DNA from: Rhodomicrobium sp. R_RK_3 | GTDB lineage: Bacteria > Pseudomonadota > Alphaproteobacteria > Rhizobiales > Rhodomicrobiaceae | Direction: 5' to 3' | Length of the DNA: 64,000 bases | NCBI RefSeq assembly: GCF_002198715.1 | Contig: NZ_MWLK01000006.1 | Coordinates: 62,001-126,000, forward strand | Notes under the pieces: generated by a model | What the model saw: the letters and a program-made list of their open reading frames with translations, nothing else | The model's database searches: none | What the model was told of the DNA's origin: nothing | Shown: in pieces, positions 37,263 through 53,181 of the stretch | Layout of the letters: each line of letters begins with the position of its first letter | How positions within the stretch are numbered: position 1 is the stretch's first letter | Program-made: the position numbers and the translations under genes

Positions 37263-38708
37263 CTACTCTTTCAGAAGCCGCTTCAAGACTTCGATCTCGT
37301 CCTTCAGCACGGCGTCGGCGGCCAGCAGCGACTCGATCTTGCGGATGGCGTGCAGCACCGTGGTGTGGTCCCGCCCGCCAAAGCGCCGGCCGATCTCGGG
37401 CAGCGAGCGCGCGGTCAGGGACTTGGCCAGATACATGCCGATCTGGCGCGGCCGGACGATCGAGCGGTTGCGCCGCGAGGACAGCAGATCGCCGCGATTG
37501 ACGCCGAAATGCTTCATGACGACGCGCAGGATGTCGTCGATCTTGACCCGGCGCGGCTCCTTGCCGCGGATCAGATCGCCGATGATCTGCTCGGCGCTCT
37601 CGACGGTGATCGGCTGCGCGGTGAGCTGGAAGGCCGCATGGATGCGGGTGATGGCGCCTTCGAGCTCGCGCCCGCTCTCGGTGAGCTGCGAGGCGAGGAA
37701 TTCGATCACCGGCTCGGGGATGCCGAAGCCGCGCTCCTGCTCGGCCTTTTCCGCCGCGCGCCGCTTCAGCACCTTGCAGCGCAGATCATAATCCAGCGCG
37801 CCGACTTCGGCGACGAGACCGCCGGACAGCCGCGACCGCATGCGCGCATCGAAGCTTTCGAGCTGCATGGGGGGGCAATCGGCGGCGACGACCACCTGCT
37901 TGCCGCCGTCGATCAGCGAGTTCAGCGTGTGGCAGAATTCCTGCTGGAAGGTGCGGCCCTGCAAAAACTCGATGTCGTCGATCAAGAGGATGTCGATGGC
38001 GCGGATCATGTCCTTGTAAGCCACCGCGTCACGCGTCTGCAGCGCCTCGGCGAAGCTGTACATGAAGCGCTCGGCCGTCAAATAAAGCAGCTTGGCCTTC
38101 GGCTTGCGCCGCCGGACTTCCCAGGCAATCGCATGCAGCAGATGGGTCTTGCCGAGCCCGACCTTGGCATGGAGATAGAGCGGGTTGTAGCGCAGCGGAT
38201 GATCGGCGACCGCCTCGGTCACTTGCAGCGCGGCCGCATGGGCGAGCCGGTTCGAGGCGCCGACGATGAAGGACGAGAAGGTGAAGCGCGCTTCGAGCGG
38301 CGAGCCTTCGAACCCGTCCCAGCCCGTGCGGCTGTCCCGGCTTGCGGGTTCGTCATGGCGCGTCGAGCCCGGTTTCGGCGCGTCGAGCTTGGGCGCGGGC
38401 CGCTCGGCGGCGCGGCGTTCGGCGACCGCCGCGTCATGCGGCTGGCGAACCCGGAATTCCAGGCGCTCGACCCCGGCCAGCTCGGCGCTGCAGCAGGCCA
38501 AAAGCCGCTCGGAATAATGCGACTGCAGCCAATTGCGCAGGAATTTGGTCGGTACGGAGACCTGAACGAGACCGTCATCGCAGGCTTCGAGTTCCACCCG
38601 TCCGAACCAACTCGTGAATACGTCTTCGCCCAGCTCGGCGCGCAGCCTCGCCTGGACCCGCCGCCACTTGCCTTCGATAGCATTGGCGCTCAGTTCTAAT
38701 GTCGTCAC
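37263..38708 (-). CDS. dnaA: Chromosomal replication initiator DnaA
   Basis: AAA+ initiator that opens oriC. Domain I begins ANAIEGKWRRVQARLRAELG, then DVFTSWFGRVEL. Domain III has Walker A LHAKVGLGKTHLLHAIAWEV and Walker B IDILLIDDIEFLQG. Domain IV has the DnaA-box signature RRFGGRDHTTVLHAIRKIES. From GTG 38708 the product is 481 aa, a normal length. A longer frame reaches ATG 38789 but adds an arginine-rich stretch with no ribosome site. An unknown gene ends at 38818, just upstream on the same strand, and may be co-transcribed. Confidence 0.96.
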   Translation of the reverse strand: MTTLELSANAIEGKWRRVQARLRAELGEDVFTSWFGRVELEACDDGLVQVSVPTKFLRNWLQSHYSERLLACCSAELAGVERLEFRVRQPHDAAVAERRAAERPAPKLDAPKPGSTRHDEPASRDSRTGWDGFEGSPLEARFTFSSFIVGASNRLAHAAALQVTEAVADHPLRYNPLYLHAKVGLGKTHLLHAIAWEVRRRKPKAKLLYLTAERFMYSFAEALQTRDAVAYKDMIRAIDILLIDDIEFLQGRTFQQEFCHTLNSLIDGGKQVVVAADCPPMQLESFDARMRSRLSGGLVAEVGALDYDLRCKVLKRRAAEKAEQERGFGIPEPVIEFLASQLTESGRELEGAITRIHAAFQLTAQPITVESAEQIIGDLIRGKEPRRVKIDDILRVVMKHFGVNRGDLLSSRRNRSIVRPRQIGMYLAKSLTARSLPEIGRRFGGRDHTTVLHAIRKIESLLAADAVLKDEIEVLKRLLKE

Positions 38709-38817
38709 TGGAATACCCCGCTGTTGAGCTCCGCGACAGCTAGAAGCCGCGCGAAATCGTTCACGCCGTCTCTGATGGACGGTCGTCATGCATGCTTTGA
38801 AATCAGCGTCGACGGAC

Positions 38818-39270: not shown

Positions 39271-39820
39271 AAATACCTCCTGCTCGCCGACCGCATTCGC
39301 GCTTCATGGCTTCTTTATTTTACGCCGCACAATTCGAAGCTCAGTCCAGGCGTGAAAGCAGTCTCCTTATGAACCACAAAAACCTTCGACAAATTCATTC
39401 CGCGCGCTCGCAAATGCCATTTTGCAAACGTTGAGAATGGCGGTACGCATTACAAAGGAAGAATATATCAGGAGGGGAAACTGTCCCCGTTCGGATAGCC
39501 AGAACTATACACGCGCGGCCCATGGCTTGCAATCTGCCCGCCCGCGGAAGGGGCCGGAGAGGGGCCGATCGGCCACGCTGCCCGGCGAGAGCGCCCATTG
39601 CATCCGACTCAGCGACTGACAAGTAAGTCTTTGATTTCATTCTACAAAACAACGACAGTGTGAGTCGGCAATCTTGGGGTAGGGGTCAACACGAATCCGG
39701 CGCTGATGCCCAATTTTTTACTTGATTGCACAATCTTAACTGTCGCAACCATAGATTGAAAACGGTTAATGAACCGTTAATTCCTTGATTCAAAACGCGA
39801 AGTTAGAAGCAAGCGCAAAA
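39271..39820. other. AT-rich gap between rpsT and the dnaA-upstream gene: candidate replication-control region
   Basis: About 550 bases, clearly AT-richer than the window (runs such as CAATTTTTTACTTGATTG near 39711). It contains one perfect CtrA-type box (39766–39780) and four GANTC sites (GACTC 39606, GAGTC 39662, GAATC 39693, GATTC 39787). It also has TGAACCACA (39370–39378), one base from the TGATCCACA DnaA G-box. No perfect TTATCCACA box is seen. It must hold the promoter of the unknown gene and perhaps dnaA. Origin function is a hypothesis. Confidence 0.45.
39766..39780. promoter_or_regulatory. CtrA-type box near dnaA
   Basis: A perfect TTAA-N7-TTAA (TTAA-TGAACCG-TTAA). It also forms part of an inverted repeat AACGGTT-AATG-AACCGTT. 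CtrA, the cell-cycle master regulator of alphaproteobacteria, binds this motif. It lies downstream of the rpsT terminator, on the side facing the dnaA genes. Confidence 0.6.
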
Positions 39821-39850
39821 ACGAAAAACGCCCAGCAAATGCTGGGCGTT
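39821..39850 (-). terminator. Rho-independent terminator of rpsT
   Basis: A perfect 10-bp stem AACGCCCAGC (39827–39836) / GCTGGGCGTT (39841–39850) has a 4-base loop. On the minus strand it is followed by TTTTTCGTTTTTG. It lies 45 bases past the rpsT stop. Confidence 0.92.
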
Positions 39851-39895
39851 GCAGAAAAATCACAGCGTGCGCGCGAGTCGCGATTGGGCCGCGCG

Positions 39896-40162
39896 TCAGG
39901 CCCCGAGGACGCGAATCCGGGCCGAAAGACGCGAGATTTTGCGGCTCGCGGTGTTCTTATGGATGATGCCCTTCTGCGCACCGCGCATGATCTCGGGCTG
40001 TGCGTTCTGCAGAGCGGTCGCGGCCGCGGACTTGTCGCCGGTCGCAATCGCTTCCTCGACCTTGCGGATGAAGGTGCGCATGCGGCTGCGGCGGTTCTTG
40101 TTCATGGCGGTGCGTCTTTCGATCACACGAACCGCCTTTTTGGCAGATTTGGTATTGGCCAT
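39896..40162 (-). CDS. rpsT: 30S ribosomal protein S20
   Basis: An 88-aa, strongly basic ribosomal protein that binds the 5' domain of 16S rRNA. It begins [20 protein letters not shown] and has [16 protein letters not shown] and [20 protein letters not shown], all typical of S20. It has its own terminator. Placement upstream of dnaA is conserved across Hyphomicrobiales and Caulobacter. Confidence 0.98.
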
Positions 40163-45594: not shown

Positions 45595-47178
45595 ATGGTA
45601 AACGGCCTCGTCAATCTCTTCAGGCTCGCGCGTGCGGGCACCGTCCTCGTCTGGCATGGCGTGCATGTGGTGCCCGAGGGCATCGACGCGCCGGCGCCCG
45701 CGCGCCTGCTGCAGCGGCTCACGGCGCCCTTTCGCGACAAGCGGGCGGGCAAATCGGCGCGGCTGTCCAAGGCGCTGACGACGCTCGGGCCGAGCTACAT
45801 CAAGCTCGGCCAGTTCCTCGCCACGCGCCGCGACGTGATCGGCCCGGAACTCGCCGGCGATCTCGCCAGCCTGCAGGACCGGCTGCCGCCCTTCTCGATG
45901 GAAGAAGCGCGCCAGACCATCCGCGACTCGCTCGGCGCCGATGCCGGCACGCTCTACGCCACTTTCGGACCGCCGGTCGCCGCCGCATCCATCGCCCAGG
46001 TCCATAAGGCCAGCGTCCGCCAGCCTGACGGCAGCGCGCGCGCGGTCGCGGTCAAAATCCTGCGGCCGGGCATCGAAAGGCGCTTCCGCAGCGACCTCGA
46101 CAGCTTCTATTTCGCCGCCCGGCTGATCGAGCGCTTCCATGCGCCCTCGCGCCGCCTGCGCCCGGTCGCCGTGGTCGATACGCTCGCGGAATGGACGCGG
46201 CTCGAGATGGATTTGCGGCTGGAAGCGGCCGCCATGTCGGAGATGGCCGAAAACATCGCCCGCGCCGGCGACAAGGGCTTTCGCGTGCCCAAGGTCGACT
46301 GGACCCGCACCTCCGCCCGCGTCATGACCATCGAATGGGTCAACGCCATCCCGATCGCCGATCTCGCCGCCATCGACCGCGCCGGCATCGACCGCGAAAC
46401 GCTCGGCAATCACGTCATCCGCTCCTTCCTGCGTCACGCCATGCGTGACGGCTTCTTCCACGCCGACATGCATCAGGGCAATCTCTTCGTCGAGCCGGAC
46501 GGCACGCTGGTGCCGGTCGATTTCGGCATCATGGGACGGCTCGGGCCGCCGGAAAAACGCTTCCTCGCCGAGATCCTCTACGGCTTCCTGACCCGCGATT
46601 ACCGGCGCACCGCGCGCATGCATCTGGAGGCCGGCTACGTGCCCCCGCATCACAGCGTCGAAAGCTTTGCCCAGGCGCTGCGCTCCATCGGCGAGCCTTT
46701 GATGGACCGCACCGCCGAGGAAATCTCGATGGCCCGGCTTTTGTCGCAGCTCTTCGAAGTGACCGAGCTGTTCGACATGCGCACGCGGCCGGAATTGCTG
46801 CTTTTGCAAAAGACAATGGTGGTGGTCGAGGGCGTCGCCCGCTCGCTCGACCCGCGGCTGAACATCTGGACCGCCGCCGAGCCGGTGGTGAAGGGCTGGA
46901 TGGAGGACCAGATCGGCCCGCGCGCGCGGATCGCCGAGGCGGTCGAGGGGGTCGGCGCGCTCGCCGGGCTGGTCGCCGAGGCGCCGAAACTGGCCGAGCA
47001 GGCCCGGCGCGTGAGCGCGGCGCTGACCGAGGCCGGCGAAACGGGGTTCCGGCTGGATGATTCGACGGTCGAGCGGATGGCTGCGGCGCAGACCGCCGGA
47101 AGCTGGCCCGCCCGCGCGGCGCTCTGGCTTGGCGCGGTGGCGCTGGCGGCGATTGCGGTGAAAATATGGGTGGCGTAG
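45595..47178 (+). CDS. ubiB: UbiB-family ABC1/ADCK-like protein of ubiquinone biosynthesis
   Basis: Atypical kinase-like ATPase needed for aerobic ubiquinone synthesis. The 527-aa product has the KxGQ motif (GPSYIKLGQFLATRRDVIGP), the alanine-rich loop AAASIAQVHKASV in place of a P-loop, lysine in AVAVKILRPG, catalytic-loop HADMHQGNLFVEPDG and VDFGIMGRLG (DFG). One hydrophobic C-terminal helix (AALWLGAVALAAIAVKIW) anchors it in the membrane, fewer than the two usual in E. coli UbiB. ATG 45595; upstream AT-rich patch at 45560–45590 is the likely promoter. Confidence 0.95.
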   Translation: MVNGLVNLFRLARAGTVLVWHGVHVVPEGIDAPAPARLLQRLTAPFRDKRAGKSARLSKALTTLGPSYIKLGQFLATRRDVIGPELAGDLASLQDRLPPFSMEEARQTIRDSLGADAGTLYATFGPPVAAASIAQVHKASVRQPDGSARAVAVKILRPGIERRFRSDLDSFYFAARLIERFHAPSRRLRPVAVVDTLAEWTRLEMDLRLEAAAMSEMAENIARAGDKGFRVPKVDWTRTSARVMTIEWVNAIPIADLAAIDRAGIDRETLGNHVIRSFLRHAMRDGFFHADMHQGNLFVEPDGTLVPVDFGIMGRLGPPEKRFLAEILYGFLTRDYRRTARMHLEAGYVPPHHSVESFAQALRSIGEPLMDRTAEEISMARLLSQLFEVTELFDMRTRPELLLLQKTMVVVEGVARSLDPRLNIWTAAEPVVKGWMEDQIGPRARIAEAVEGVGALAGLVAEAPKLAEQARRVSAALTEAGETGFRLDDSTVERMAAAQTAGSWPARAALWLGAVALAAIAVKIWVA

Positions 47179-47194
47179 GGAACGACGTCTAAAT

Positions 47195-48145
47195 TCAGTT
47201 ACATCGATGGAAGTAGTAGATCTCCGGGACGTAGATATAACCCGTCCTGTTAAGCGCGCCGAACGGGTCCGCAAACTTAATATCCACAGTTATCCCTTCT
47301 ATAGGCCCCCGGAACAGGAGTGGAATACCAGCCAACACGATTATAGTTGCCTGCCCTCGATCGGTATCATCGGCGGCGATGTTTACTGGAATGATCTCGG
47401 TGGTCGGGGCAGAATCATCCTCATCTGAAGCATTTGCTCCGCTCGCTCTTGGATGTATTAGCCAGCAAAGAGCTATGCCGTTGCCGCAGGTGAATTGCGC
47501 CTGATGTGTCCATTCCAAGGCCCCGTCTCGTCCGAAACTGCGCAAGGTTACGCCATCGGGAGAGTCAATCGCCGAGAACTGCACCTCCGTGTACATACCT
47601 TCATGAGCACTTGAGCGAAATGATGCGGCTGTCCAATCGCAACGCAGTTTCGACTTGGTTTCTTGGCCTATATTTTGTTGGCGGATTTGAGGGGCACAAT
47701 CAATCCTTTGATAAACCTCGGTAAAGCGCGTCGGCTTCTTCCGAGGGCGCGCCATAGATGTCTCTCGGACGTCCGCAACGAGTAAATCTCCAAAGCGCGA
47801 AAACGAGTAGGTTCGGTGCATTTGATCGCCTTGAATGCCGCAACTCGTGCGCAACACGATGCTCTCTCCGCGCCGGATAACACCGCTATCGATATAGCAG
47901 CTAAACTCATACCCGCTTAGCCGGCGCCCTTTAATGAATATCCCGGTCTCCTCACCAATTTGCCAATCATCCCCTTTGCGGGCAAAACCATTGCACGCAT
48001 CGTGCGCGGGCGCTTTTATCGACCTTACGTTTGGTCCGACGTAAATCCAGGTCCCCTCTATGTCGCTATAGGCGATTTTCTTTCGCGCCGCATTCGCGTC
48101 AGAGATCGTGCAAAGACACAAGAGGACAAAACAAAGGGTACGCAT
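47195..48145 (-). CDS. Secreted protein of unknown function, AT-richer than neighbours
   Basis: A 316-aa protein with a cleavable signal peptide (MRTLCFVLLCLCTISDANA), then a charged mature chain with seven or more cysteines (DACNGFA, FSCYIDSG, RTSCGIQ, RIDCAPQ, LRCDWTA, FTCGNGIALCW), suggesting disulfides. The N-terminal half (YSDIEGTWIYVGPNVRSIKA) resembles small lipocalin-like 'extracytoplasmic' domains only loosely. The DNA is visibly lower in GC than genes on both sides. It occupies the place where the second half of split methionine synthase is often found. Family not recognised; possible recent acquisition. Confidence 0.7.
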   Translation of the reverse strand: MRTLCFVLLCLCTISDANAARKKIAYSDIEGTWIYVGPNVRSIKAPAHDACNGFARKGDDWQIGEETGIFIKGRRLSGYEFSCYIDSGVIRRGESIVLRTSCGIQGDQMHRTYSFSRFGDLLVADVRETSMARPRKKPTRFTEVYQRIDCAPQIRQQNIGQETKSKLRCDWTAASFRSSAHEGMYTEVQFSAIDSPDGVTLRSFGRDGALEWTHQAQFTCGNGIALCWLIHPRASGANASDEDDSAPTTEIIPVNIAADDTDRGQATIIVLAGIPLLFRGPIEGITVDIKFADPFGALNRTGYIYVPEIYYFHRCN

Positions 48146-48236
48146 TGCTCATCACGAAGAAGACGGCCCTAAGCCTTCGATCTTCGCGGCAAAACATTAG
48201 CGATGCACTGAAACGCTCTCCCAACTTGGCTGAGCC

Positions 48237-49298
48237 TCAGGCGTGCACGAACGGCTCCAGCCCCGACAGCCGCATTTTCGGCTCGACTCTTGCCAGCTTG
48301 CGCGGGGCATATTTCTCCACATGCTCGCGGATATGCGCGATGTGCGCCGGCGTCGAACCGCAGCAGCCGCCGACGATGTTCAGCAACCCGTCGCGGGCCC
48401 AGTCCTCCATCTTGCAGGCCATTTCGTGGGGCGTTTCGTCGTACTCGCCCATGGCGTTGGGCAGGCCGGCATTGGGATAGGCCGAGACGTAGCAGCTCGC
48501 CACCGCCGCGATCTCGGCCACGGCCGGGCGCAGGGCTTCCGCGCCGAAGGAGCAGTTCAGCCCGACCGAGAACGGCCGCAGATGGCGCATCGAATACCAG
48601 AAAGCTTCCGGCGTCTGGCCGGAGAGGTTGCGGCCGGACAGATCCGTGATCGTGCCGGAGATCATGATCGGCAGCGTCACGCCGGTCGCCTCGAACGTTT
48701 CCAGAACGGCAAAGCCCGCCGCCTTGGCGTTCAGCGTGTCGAACACCGTCTCGATCATGACGGCATCGACCCCGCCCTCGATCAGCGCGCGGGTCTGCTC
48801 GGAATAGGCGGCGACCAGCGCGTCGAAGGTGACGTTGCGGAAGCCGGGATTGTTGACGTCGGGCGAGAGCGATGCGGTGCGGTTGGTCGGGCCGATGGCG
48901 CCGGCGACGAAGCGCGGACGGTCGGGCGTCTTGGCGGTCCAGGCGTCGGCCGCCGCGCGGGCGATCCTCGCCGCTTCCAGATTGATCTCGTAGCTCAGGC
49001 TTTCCATGCCGTAATCGGCCATGGAAATCGCCTGCGCATTAAAAGTGTTGGTCTCGATGATGTCGGCGCCGGCTTCCAGATAGGCCTCGTGGATCGAACG
49101 GATGATCTCCGGCTGGGTCAGCACCAGCAGATCGTTATTGCCCTTGATGTCGGAGGGCCAGTCGGCGAAGCGTGCGCCGCGATAATCGGCCTCGCCGAGC
49201 CGGTAGCCCTGGATCTCGGTGCCCATCGCGCCGTCGAGGATCAGGATGCGCTCGGCGGCGGCGGCCTTCAGGGCCTCGATACGGGTTTCGCGTGTCAT
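48237..49298 (-). CDS. Homocysteine S-methyltransferase domain of a split methionine synthase (MetH N-terminal part)
   Basis: Binds homocysteine and zinc for transfer of a methyl group from cobalamin. The 353-aa product starts at ATG 49298 (GGAG 6 bases before it) and has [57 protein letters not shown] and zinc ligands in [10 protein letters not shown] and [11 protein letters not shown]. It ends at [12 protein letters not shown], exactly where full-length MetH continues into the folate domain, so it is the first half of a two-gene MetH. The second gene is not next to it here. metF lies 13 bases upstream. Confidence 0.93.
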
Positions 49299-49311
49299 GA
49301 TAGTCTCCAAA

Positions 49312-50253
49312 CTATGCGAGCGCCGGGCTGATCGAAGCGGCGATATGCGAGCCGTTCTCCCCCGCCGGCCGGATGCCGAGCAGATGGCAGATGGCGTAGA
49401 CGAGATTGGCGCGGTTCAGCGTGTAGAAGTGGAATTCGCGCACGCCCTGCTCGGCAAGGCCCAGAACCTGTTCCGCCGCGACGGTCGCGGCCATCAGATG
49501 GGTGGTCTCGGCGTCCTGGTCCAGCCCCTCAAAACGCTCGGCCATGCGGGCCGGGATGGTCGCGCCGCATTGGGCTGCGAAGCGCGCGACCTGCGCGAAA
49601 TTGTGCACCGGGATGATGCCGGGCACGATCGGCACCTCGATGCCGGCGGCGCGGACGGCGTCGAGATAGCGGTAAAAATGCTCGTTGTCGAAGAAGAACT
49701 GGGTGATGGCCCGGTTGGCGCCGGCATCGACCTTGGCCTTCAGCATGGCAATGTCGGCGGCGATGCTCGGCGAATCCGGATGCTTTTCCGGATAGGCGGC
49801 GACGGAGATTTCGAAGCCGCCGATGGCCTCGATGCCCGCGACCAGCGCCGCCGCATTGGCATAGCCGCCGGGATGCGGCGCATAGGGCTCGCCCGCGCCG
49901 CTGGCCGCATCGCCCCTCAGCGCGACGATGTGGCGGATGCCGGCGGCCGAATAGGACCGCACCACCTCGTCCACCTCCGCGCGCGTCGCCCCGACGCAGG
50001 TCAGATGGGCGGCCGGGCGCAGATCGGTCTCCCGCGCGAGGCGGGCGACGGTCGCATGGGTGCGCTCGCGGGTCGAGCCGCCCGCGCCATAGGTGACCGA
50101 GACGAATTCCGGGTTTAGCGGCTCGAGGCGGCGCACGGCCTCCCAGAGGCTGGCCTCCATCTTGGGCGTCTTCGGCGGAAAGAATTCGAAGGACACCCGC
50201 ATCGGCGCCGCTTTCCTGCCCGCGCCTTCAGCCTTTTCATCATCGCCGTTCAT
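49312..50253 (-). CDS. metF: Methylenetetrahydrofolate reductase
   Basis: Reduces 5,10-methylene-THF to 5-methyl-THF for methionine synthesis. The 313-aa product is a flavoprotein TIM barrel with [57 protein letters not shown] and [23 protein letters not shown] 50253; the extra N-terminal stretch ([14 protein letters not shown]) before the conserved start is typical of alphaproteobacterial MetF. It lies between the ArsR–methyltransferase gene and metH, an arrangement known in several alphaproteobacteria. Confidence 0.96.
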
Positions 50254-50258
50254 AGGCT

Positions 50259-51269
50259 CTAGCCTTCCAAAACCGTTTCCGCCGCTTCGCGCTTTTTCCT
50301 CGACCGCTCCGGCGGCTTGACCGCCATCCAGAGCGACACCGTCAGCTTGCCCTCCGCCTTCTTGGCGGGCCGGATCGCCTCGTAATGGCCCGATGTCAGC
50401 CCCTCGCGCTTCAGCCAGTCCTCGACCAGTTCGCGCTCGAAGCCGAGGCGGCGATGGGCGTAATCTTCGCGCATGGACTCAAGGTCATGCGGCGCGAAAT
50501 CGACGATCAGCAGCCGCCCGCCCGGCTTCAGCAGCCGCGCCGCCTCCGCCACGGCCTTGGCCGGCTCCTCCAGGAAATGCAGCACCTGATGGATGACCAC
50601 CGCCTCCGCCGCGCCAGTTTCGAGCGGAAGGTTGAAGATATCGCCAAGCCGGAGCTGGGCATTGCGGACGCCGCCCGCCGCGAGGCGCGCCCGCGCATGG
50701 GCGAGCATCTCCCGGTTGACGTCGAAGCCGGCGAGGCGGGCCGCGCGTGCGGCGAACAGCTCCAGAATGCGGCCCGTGCCGGTGCCGAGGTCGATCAGCA
50801 GCTCGAAAGGCCCCTGGCCCATCGCTGTGAGCATGGCGGCCTCGACGGCGGCTTCAGGCGCATGGTGCGAGCGGATCTCGTCCCAGGCGGCGGCGTGGGC
50901 CTCGAAATAGGCCTGGGCGGCGGCGCTCTTTTCCTGGCGCAGGCCATCGGCGCGGGCAAGGTCGCGGCCGATCAGGGCATCCTTGGGGTCGATGGCAGCG
51001 AGAAGCTGGGTCAGGATGGCGGCACCGGGGCCGTGCTCGGCGAGGCGGTAAAAGACCGAGCTACCCTCCTGGAAGCGCTCGATCAGCCGGGCCTCGGCCA
51101 GCAGCTTGAGGTGTCGGCTGAGGCGCGGCTGGCTCTGCCCGAGAATCTGGGTCAAATCCTTGACGTTGAACTCGCCATGGGCGAGGAGCATCAACAGGCG
51201 CAGCCGCGTGGTCTCCCCCGCCGACCGCAGGATCTCGACCAGTTCCGCCGCGGGGATCGCCCCTTGCAT
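50259..51269 (-). CDS. ArsR-family regulator fused to a SAM-dependent methyltransferase (SahR-like)
   Basis: A 336-aa two-domain protein. Residues about 1–100 are an ArsR winged helix (RSAGETTRLRLLMLLAHGEF, GQSQPRLSRHLKLLAEARLI). Residues about 130–310 are a class I methyltransferase with SAM motif LLIDLGTGTGRILELFA and LKPGGRLLIVDFAPHD. Such fusions sit beside metF/metH in alphaproteobacteria and belong with the SahR-type regulators that sense S-adenosylhomocysteine. Control of the metF–metH operon by the SAM/SAH state is the natural reading. A 20-bp near-perfect palindrome lies 16 bases upstream of the start. Whether the methyltransferase fold is active or only a sensor is unknown. Confidence 0.9.
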   Translation of the reverse strand: MQGAIPAAELVEILRSAGETTRLRLLMLLAHGEFNVKDLTQILGQSQPRLSRHLKLLAEARLIERFQEGSSVFYRLAEHGPGAAILTQLLAAIDPKDALIGRDLARADGLRQEKSAAAQAYFEAHAAAWDEIRSHHAPEAAVEAAMLTAMGQGPFELLIDLGTGTGRILELFAARAARLAGFDVNREMLAHARARLAAGGVRNAQLRLGDIFNLPLETGAAEAVVIHQVLHFLEEPAKAVAEAARLLKPGGRLLIVDFAPHDLESMREDYAHRRLGFERELVEDWLKREGLTSGHYEAIRPAKKAEGKLTVSLWMAVKPPERSRKKREAAETVLEG

Positions 51270-51284
51270 TACGAATTCGTCCTC

Positions 51285-51304
51285 ATATAAACATATCTTT
51301 ATAT
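51285..51304 (-). promoter_or_regulatory. Candidate operator of the ArsR–metF–metH operon
   Basis: A 20-base near-perfect palindrome, ATATAAAGAT on the minus strand followed by ATGTTTATAT, with a single mismatched pair. It overlaps a -10-like TATAAA; a -35-like TTGACT lies upstream on the minus strand with a long (about 19-base) spacer. AT-rich palindromes of this form suit ArsR dimers. Seen directly: the symmetry. Inferred: autorepression of this operon. Confidence 0.65.
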
Positions 51305-51348
51305 CCTTCTATCGGCGGCAAAAGTCAAGGCCCCAGACCGGCACGCCG

Positions 51349-51388
51349 TTAAGCCGGCATTAACCCCGTCCGCTTAATTTCGACTTAA
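51349..51388 (+). promoter_or_regulatory. Two CtrA-type boxes upstream of ccrM
   Basis: Box 1 is TTAA-GCCGGCA-TTAA followed by C (51349–51363), the full TTAA-N7-TTAAC consensus. Box 2 is TTAA-TTTCGAC-TTAA (51374–51388). They are 25 bases apart, centre to centre. In Caulobacter CtrA activates ccrM late in the cell cycle from such sites. The pair lies 115–155 bases before the ccrM ATG. No GANTC site is seen in this intergenic region. Confidence 0.75.
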
Positions 51389-51491
51389 GACAGCTTTGAG
51401 TTGTGCCGATCCGGCACTCGTGGCACCGTCGTCCCCGCGCCCTGGAGCCCGATTTCCGGTTTCCGGCCGCCTCGTCGAGGTTGCGTTTTAG

Positions 51492-52905
<1,414 letters not shown>

Positions 52906-53181
52906 TCCAAGTCCTCCATTCTTCTTAAACGCTCGTTATTGATTTTGCTTACGCGAATAAAAAGTCGGGTTGCAGAAGCCTCGCGGCACCCGCCTAGATG
53001 TACCACTAACATTAGGAAAGGGATAAAGGCCATCCCGCAATACGAGATGTCCCACCAAAATCATCATAGCATCGCGAGATCGCCAAATTTGTGGCAATTT
53101 TGCAAATCTAGGTGCGAACACGTATTGAGCTCCCCTTTACACCTATGGCTTGTGGAGAGTACGTAGCGTCACTCTGCAAGC
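52906..53181. other. AT-richer intergenic stretch before rnpB
   Basis: About 275 bases with no supported gene or tRNA. Composition is noticeably AT-richer than its surroundings (e.g. around 52930–52960 and 53080–53110). The promoters of the zinc-ribbon gene (minus strand) lie at its left end. Confidence 0.4.

What the first reader, a model, noticed from the sequence alone, without database searches (positions are those of the whole stretch)
51349..51388. Two perfect CtrA boxes in tandem upstream of ccrM
TTAA-N7-TTAA(C) occurs twice with starts 25 bases apart in the only intergenic space upstream of ccrM. In Caulobacter, CtrA activates ccrM, closing the GANTC methylation loop of the cell cycle. 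The sites are exact, but they lie unusually far (115–155 bases) from the ATG and no GANTC is seen in the gap. The negative feedback by methylation reported for Caulobacter ccrM may therefore be missing or placed differently.
Basis: partly seen in the sequence, partly recalled or inferred. Interest (0 to 1): 0.68.

Follow-up and report, generated by a model that had tools for sequence, protein, structure and literature searches.

The report
Twin CtrA sites before ccrM
Just before the gene for the DNA-methylating enzyme CcrM lie two exact copies of the binding site of the cell-cycle regulator CtrA; this is an unusually clean example of a control arrangement already known in related bacteria, with a site spacing that turns out to be shared across the group.

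Summary
TTAA-N7-TTAA occurs exactly at 51349-51363 and 51374-51388, 155 and 130 bp before the ccrM ATG. The whole 5.8 Mb genome has only 24 such boxes, and this is the only close pair. The most likely reading is a CtrA-activated ccrM promoter, as shown experimentally in Sinorhizobium (PMC4433202).
Conservation is mixed. The closest relative (81% CcrM identity) keeps the upstream box but not the downstream one as an exact site. Across 163 non-redundant alphaproteobacterial ccrM upstream regions, a second, usually degenerate box recurs about 24 bp after the first (33 regions at 18/24 or better; none in shuffled sequence). So the tandem layout is shared; exactness of both copies and the 25-bp spacing are local.
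Distance to the ATG is within the order's range. Lack of GANTC near the start is usual in this order (71 of 106) but rare in Caulobacteraceae (1 of 22). Ordinary circuit, good example, modest novelty.

The parts
51349..51363 (+). CtrA box 1, TTAAGCCGGCATTAA(CC), exact TTAA-N7-TTAA
   Evidence: aligns with the single exact box TTAACGCTCGGTTAACC of the closest relative L003
51374..51388 (+). CtrA box 2, TTAATTTCGACTTAA, exact TTAA-N7-TTAA, starting 25 bp after box 1
   Evidence: not an exact box in L003, but a degenerate second box ~24 bp downstream recurs in ccrM upstream regions
51385..51399 (+). overlapping one-mismatch box TTAAGACAGCTTTGA sharing a half-site with box 2 (weak)
51504..52613 (+). 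ccrM, GANTC DNA adenine methyltransferase (N6_N4_Mtase + RAMA), ATG at 51504
   Evidence: start codon supported
51285..51304 (.). near-palindrome ATATAAACATATCTTTATAT, putative SahR-type operator of the divergent operon
   Evidence: identical in L003; second genomic copy (1 mismatch) lies before a gene read by eye as metE; SahR motif is a 20-bp palindrome (PMC4239095)
50259..51269 (-). divergent gene: ArsR-type regulator fused to a SAM-dependent methyltransferase domain (SahR-like by context)
   Evidence: next to ccrM only in the window genome and L003
49312..50253 (-). metF, methylenetetrahydrofolate reductase
   Evidence: PF02219
48237..49310 (-). homocysteine S-methyltransferase (MetH-type domain)
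   Evidence: PF02574

Best explanation
The two boxes are binding sites for phosphorylated CtrA in the ccrM promoter. CtrA dimers most likely bind both sites side by side and activate ccrM late in the cell cycle, when CtrA~P is high, so that CcrM remethylates the chromosome after replication. The transcript would start a few tens of bases downstream of box 2 and carry a leader of roughly 70-100 nt. With no GANTC in the promoter or leader, timing would rest on CtrA and on CcrM turnover rather than on methylation of ccrM's own promoter. Shown here: the sites, their rarity, the genes, the CtrA ortholog, conservation of box 1, and a class-wide recurrence of a second box about 24 bp downstream. Inferred: binding, cooperativity, activation, transcript start and timing.
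For: Exact sites against 0.01 expected; only close pair among 24 in the genome. Other exact boxes in the genome lie before plausible CtrA targets: a DUF1153 protein (the SciP family, from my own knowledge), an FtsB/DivIC-like protein, a LysM protein, a YkuD transpeptidase and dnaA. Closest relative keeps box 1. Half-sites peak at +24 and +35 from the main box (25/126 and 15/126, mean 0.7% at other offsets). At a box spacing of 24, 25 of 163 regions score at least 19/24, against 0-5 at other spacings from 17 to 33 and none in shuffles. A four-half-site pattern gave 20 matches in 198 genomes of the order against 1 for the reversed control, at least 4 of them before ccrM (with places; L219). Literature: CtrA binds and activates ccrM in S. 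meliloti (PMC4433202); ccrM is often preceded by CtrA sites in Rhizobia and Caulobacter CtrA binds the Brucella ccrM promoter in vitro (PMC2877005).
Against: Box 2 is not an exact site in the closest relative. Several same-family genomes show no exact or one-mismatch box within 350 bp (L011, L012, L013, L015, L016). The spacing here is 25, not the common 24. No clear -10 element could be picked out by eye. Exact single boxes are not enriched genome-wide over the control pattern, and about half of the exact boxes in the genome have no obvious link to the cell cycle.
Confidence: 0.82

Rival explanations
1. Only box 1 is functional; box 2 is a local, possibly accidental AT-rich match, and the promoter works with one CtrA site.
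For: The nearest relatives have a single exact box at about -114 to -139, and the sequence aligned with box 2 in L003 is not a box.
Against: A second exact box at 25 bp is very unlikely by chance, and degenerate second boxes at ~24 bp recur across ccrM upstream regions.
Confidence: 0.2
2. The conserved elements at +24/+35 are core promoter elements (-35/-10) positioned relative to one CtrA box, so the 'tandem' is partly a promoter signature.
For: The +35 element (TTTACC/TTCACC) lies about 17-18 bp from the box's downstream half-site, a -35/-10 spacing.
Against: The +24 peak is higher than the +35 peak and has no such spacing; both match the CtrA half-site TTAACC.
Confidence: 0.12
3. CtrA represses rather than activates here, or the boxes serve the divergent ArsR-methyltransferase/metF operon instead of ccrM.
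For: The intergenic space is shared with a divergent operon whose own operator lies 45 bp from box 1.
Against: Boxes before ccrM are found in genomes where the neighbour is rnhB rather than this operon, and CtrA activates ccrM in Sinorhizobium.
Confidence: 0.05

Closest known systems
CtrA-activated ccrM promoter of Sinorhizobium meliloti (PMC4433202)
   Same: ccrM preceded by CtrA sites; ChIP-seq and lacZ fusions show direct positive control there
   Different: no experiments here; both boxes here are exact TTAA-N7-TTAA
ccrM promoter of Caulobacter
   Same: a CtrA box followed 24 bp later by a degenerate second box in the C. vibrioides loci L081 and L083; CtrA-activated
   Different: Caulobacteraceae almost always have GANTC within 120 bp of the start (21 of 22) and ccrM is reported to fire only from hemimethylated DNA (PMC2217572); the window has none
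Predicted CtrA sites upstream of ccrM in Rhizobia (PMC2877005)
   Same: same regulatory link predicted by motif search
   Different: tandem spacing not mentioned in the passages I read

Membership tests
CtrA-activated ccrM promoter | TTAA-N7-TTAA box upstream of ccrM | tested here: met
   two exact boxes
CtrA-activated ccrM promoter | downstream gene is a CcrM ortholog | tested here: met
   Pfam N6_N4_Mtase and RAMA; best NCBIfam hit is the CcrM model at 613.9 bits, below that model's curated cut-off of 830; 60-81% identity to alphaproteobacterial homologs
CtrA-activated ccrM promoter | CtrA encoded in the genome | tested here: met
   80% identity, E 3.9e-122
CtrA-activated ccrM promoter | box conserved in close relatives | tested here: inconclusive
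   box 1 yes and box 2 no in L003; none in some same-family genomes
CtrA-activated ccrM promoter | CtrA binding and CtrA-dependent transcription | not testable with these tools
   needs ChIP, footprint or reporter assays
Caulobacter-type methylation-gated ccrM promoter | GANTC in promoter or leader | tested here: not met
   no GANTC between 51147 and 52091
SahR regulon (divergent operon) | ArsR-family regulator with a 20-bp palindromic operator at methionine/SAM-cycle genes | tested here: met
   ArsR domain, metF and homocysteine methyltransferase, 20-bp near-palindrome conserved in L003, second copy before a metE-like gene
SahR regulon (divergent operon) | response of the regulator to S-adenosylhomocysteine | not testable with these tools
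   needs a binding assay

The most novel reading that the evidence does not exclude
A tandem pair of CtrA boxes spaced about 24 bp is a conserved control module of alphaproteobacterial ccrM promoters and some envelope and flagellar genes, acting as a cooperative CtrA switch; in lineages that lack promoter GANTC sites, as here, this switch alone sets late timing and stands in for the methylation gate described in Caulobacter.
Probability: 0.25. Interest if true: 0.5.

Novelty: new member of a known kind. Interest (0 to 1): 0.3.

Why it matters
CcrM and CtrA form a core loop of the alphaproteobacterial cell cycle. A shared spacing of paired CtrA sites would give a testable rule for how sharply ccrM is switched on, and the contrast in GANTC content between orders makes it possible to ask whether methylation feedback on ccrM is ancestral or a Caulobacteraceae feature.

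Tried and rejected
A riboswitch or structured RNA leader: Rfam found nothing credible in 47000-53000, and the leader folds no better than shuffled sequence (z 0.36). An alternative ccrM start codon: no other in-frame start. The other exact box in the window (39766) as part of an origin of replication: no exact DnaA box in the window, and one-mismatch boxes do not cluster there, so it is read as the dnaA upstream region. A strict four-half-site pattern at spacing 24 has no match in the own genome, because the spacing here is 25. A first script to find rnhB neighbours failed and was rerun.

Full report
Observation. The window carries exact TTAA-N7-TTAA at 51349-51363 and 51374-51388. They lie 155 and 130 bp upstream of the ATG of ccrM at 51504. 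A third exact box in the window is at 39766. Shuffled windows contain 0.01 boxes on average. In the whole 5,785,296-base assembly there are 24 exact boxes, against 34 for the reversed control pattern; single boxes are therefore not enriched, but this is the only place where two lie close together. TTAA occurs only 39 times in the window and four of these make up the pair.

Genes. The gene at 51504-52613 has the N6_N4_Mtase and RAMA domains, and its best NCBIfam model is CcrM, at 613.9 bits against a curated cut-off of 830. Its ATG is the only in-frame start before the conserved region. Upstream of ccrM, pointing away from it, lies an ArsR-methyltransferase fusion followed by metF and a homocysteine methyltransferase. 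In this set that neighbour occurs only in the window genome and in L003, while rnhB was found in 58 of 129 ccrM loci (some loci are cut too short to show it). The near-palindrome ATATAAACATATCTTTATAT at 51285-51304 is identical in L003. Its only other genomic match, with one mismatch, lies before a gene whose translation I read by eye as metE. This fits the SahR regulon of methionine genes, whose operator is a 20-bp palindrome (PMC4239095); the regulator's response to SAH is untested.

Conservation. In the closest relative, L003 (81% CcrM identity), one exact box aligns with box 1 and the stretch aligned with box 2 is not a box. Of 107 ccrM upstream regions of up to 350 bp, 12 have an exact box and only the window has two; 56 have a box with at most one mismatch, against 11 for a control pattern. 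I then added 19 loci from a second search of the order and 60 regions fetched by place, giving 184 usable regions, 163 of them non-redundant. Relative to the main box, half-sites like TTAACC are enriched at +24 (25 of 126) and +35 (15 of 126), and at -13 and -24, over a mean of 0.7% at other offsets. These four offsets are what a second box 24 bp away predicts. Scoring four half-sites together, spacing 24 gives 25 regions with at least 19 of 24 matches; other spacings from 17 to 33 give 0 to 5, and shuffled sequences give none. By group, 12 of 21 Caulobacteraceae, 15 of 90 genomes of the own order and 6 of 52 others reach 18 of 24, with spacing 24 in 30 cases, 25 in two (the window among them) and 23 in one. 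The spacing, the score and the thresholds were chosen after seeing the alignments, so these counts describe the set and are not a test fixed in advance.

Specificity. A four-half-site pattern searched in 198 genomes of the order gave 20 matches against 1 for the reversed control. Three of them are at the ccrM places listed (G195, G008, G067), and a fourth lies next to a ccrM gene on a contig containing N (L219). Judged by eye from translations, without a family search, others lie near flagellin, OmpA/Pal-like lipoprotein, L,D-transpeptidase and cell-wall hydrolase genes. So the arrangement is not confined to ccrM.

Distance and GANTC. In the own order the best box starts 56-227 bp from the ATG (median 92), so 130-155 bp is on the long side but within range. 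There is no GANTC between 51147 and 52091. Within 120 bp of the start, 35 of 106 own-order genomes have a GANTC, against 21 of 22 Caulobacteraceae (start codons assigned by rule). Caulobacter ccrM is reported to be activated by CtrA only from hemimethylated DNA (PMC2217572), and methylation most probably affects ccrM itself (PMC3973325). Absence of this gate is thus the common state in the window's order, not a local loss.

Interpretation. CtrA control of ccrM is established in Sinorhizobium by ChIP-seq and reporter fusions (PMC4433202) and predicted widely in Rhizobia (PMC2877005). The window is a clean instance of it. What the comparison adds is a recurring second box about 24 bp downstream. 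I found no statement of this spacing in the papers I searched, but I read passages rather than whole papers, and I could not read the original promoter studies. Binding, cooperativity and activation in this organism remain inferred.

Noticed in passing
window 39600-39920: Upstream of dnaA (37263-38789, minus strand) lie an exact CtrA box (39766-39780) and six GANTC sites within about 312 bp, where about 0.45 per 320 bp would be expected from the window average. This suggests CtrA and methylation control of dnaA.
   Followed up: partly
window 1-64000: GANTC is strongly depleted: 91 sites against about 310 in shuffled sequence, in a genome that encodes CcrM.
   Followed up: no
window 51285-51304: A putative SahR operator sits 45 bp from CtrA box 1, so methionine/SAM-cycle control and ccrM share one intergenic region in this genome and in L003. 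CcrM uses SAM and makes SAH, so cross-talk is conceivable but untested.
   Followed up: partly
L048: A contig labelled Solirubrobacteraceae carries a ccrM 70% identical to the window's and an rnhB-ccrM order like Hyphomicrobium; probably a misbinned contig.
   Followed up: no
window 52606-52905: A small gene on the minus strand with a weak Lar-like zinc-ribbon match overlaps the 3' end of ccrM by 8 bp.
   Followed up: no
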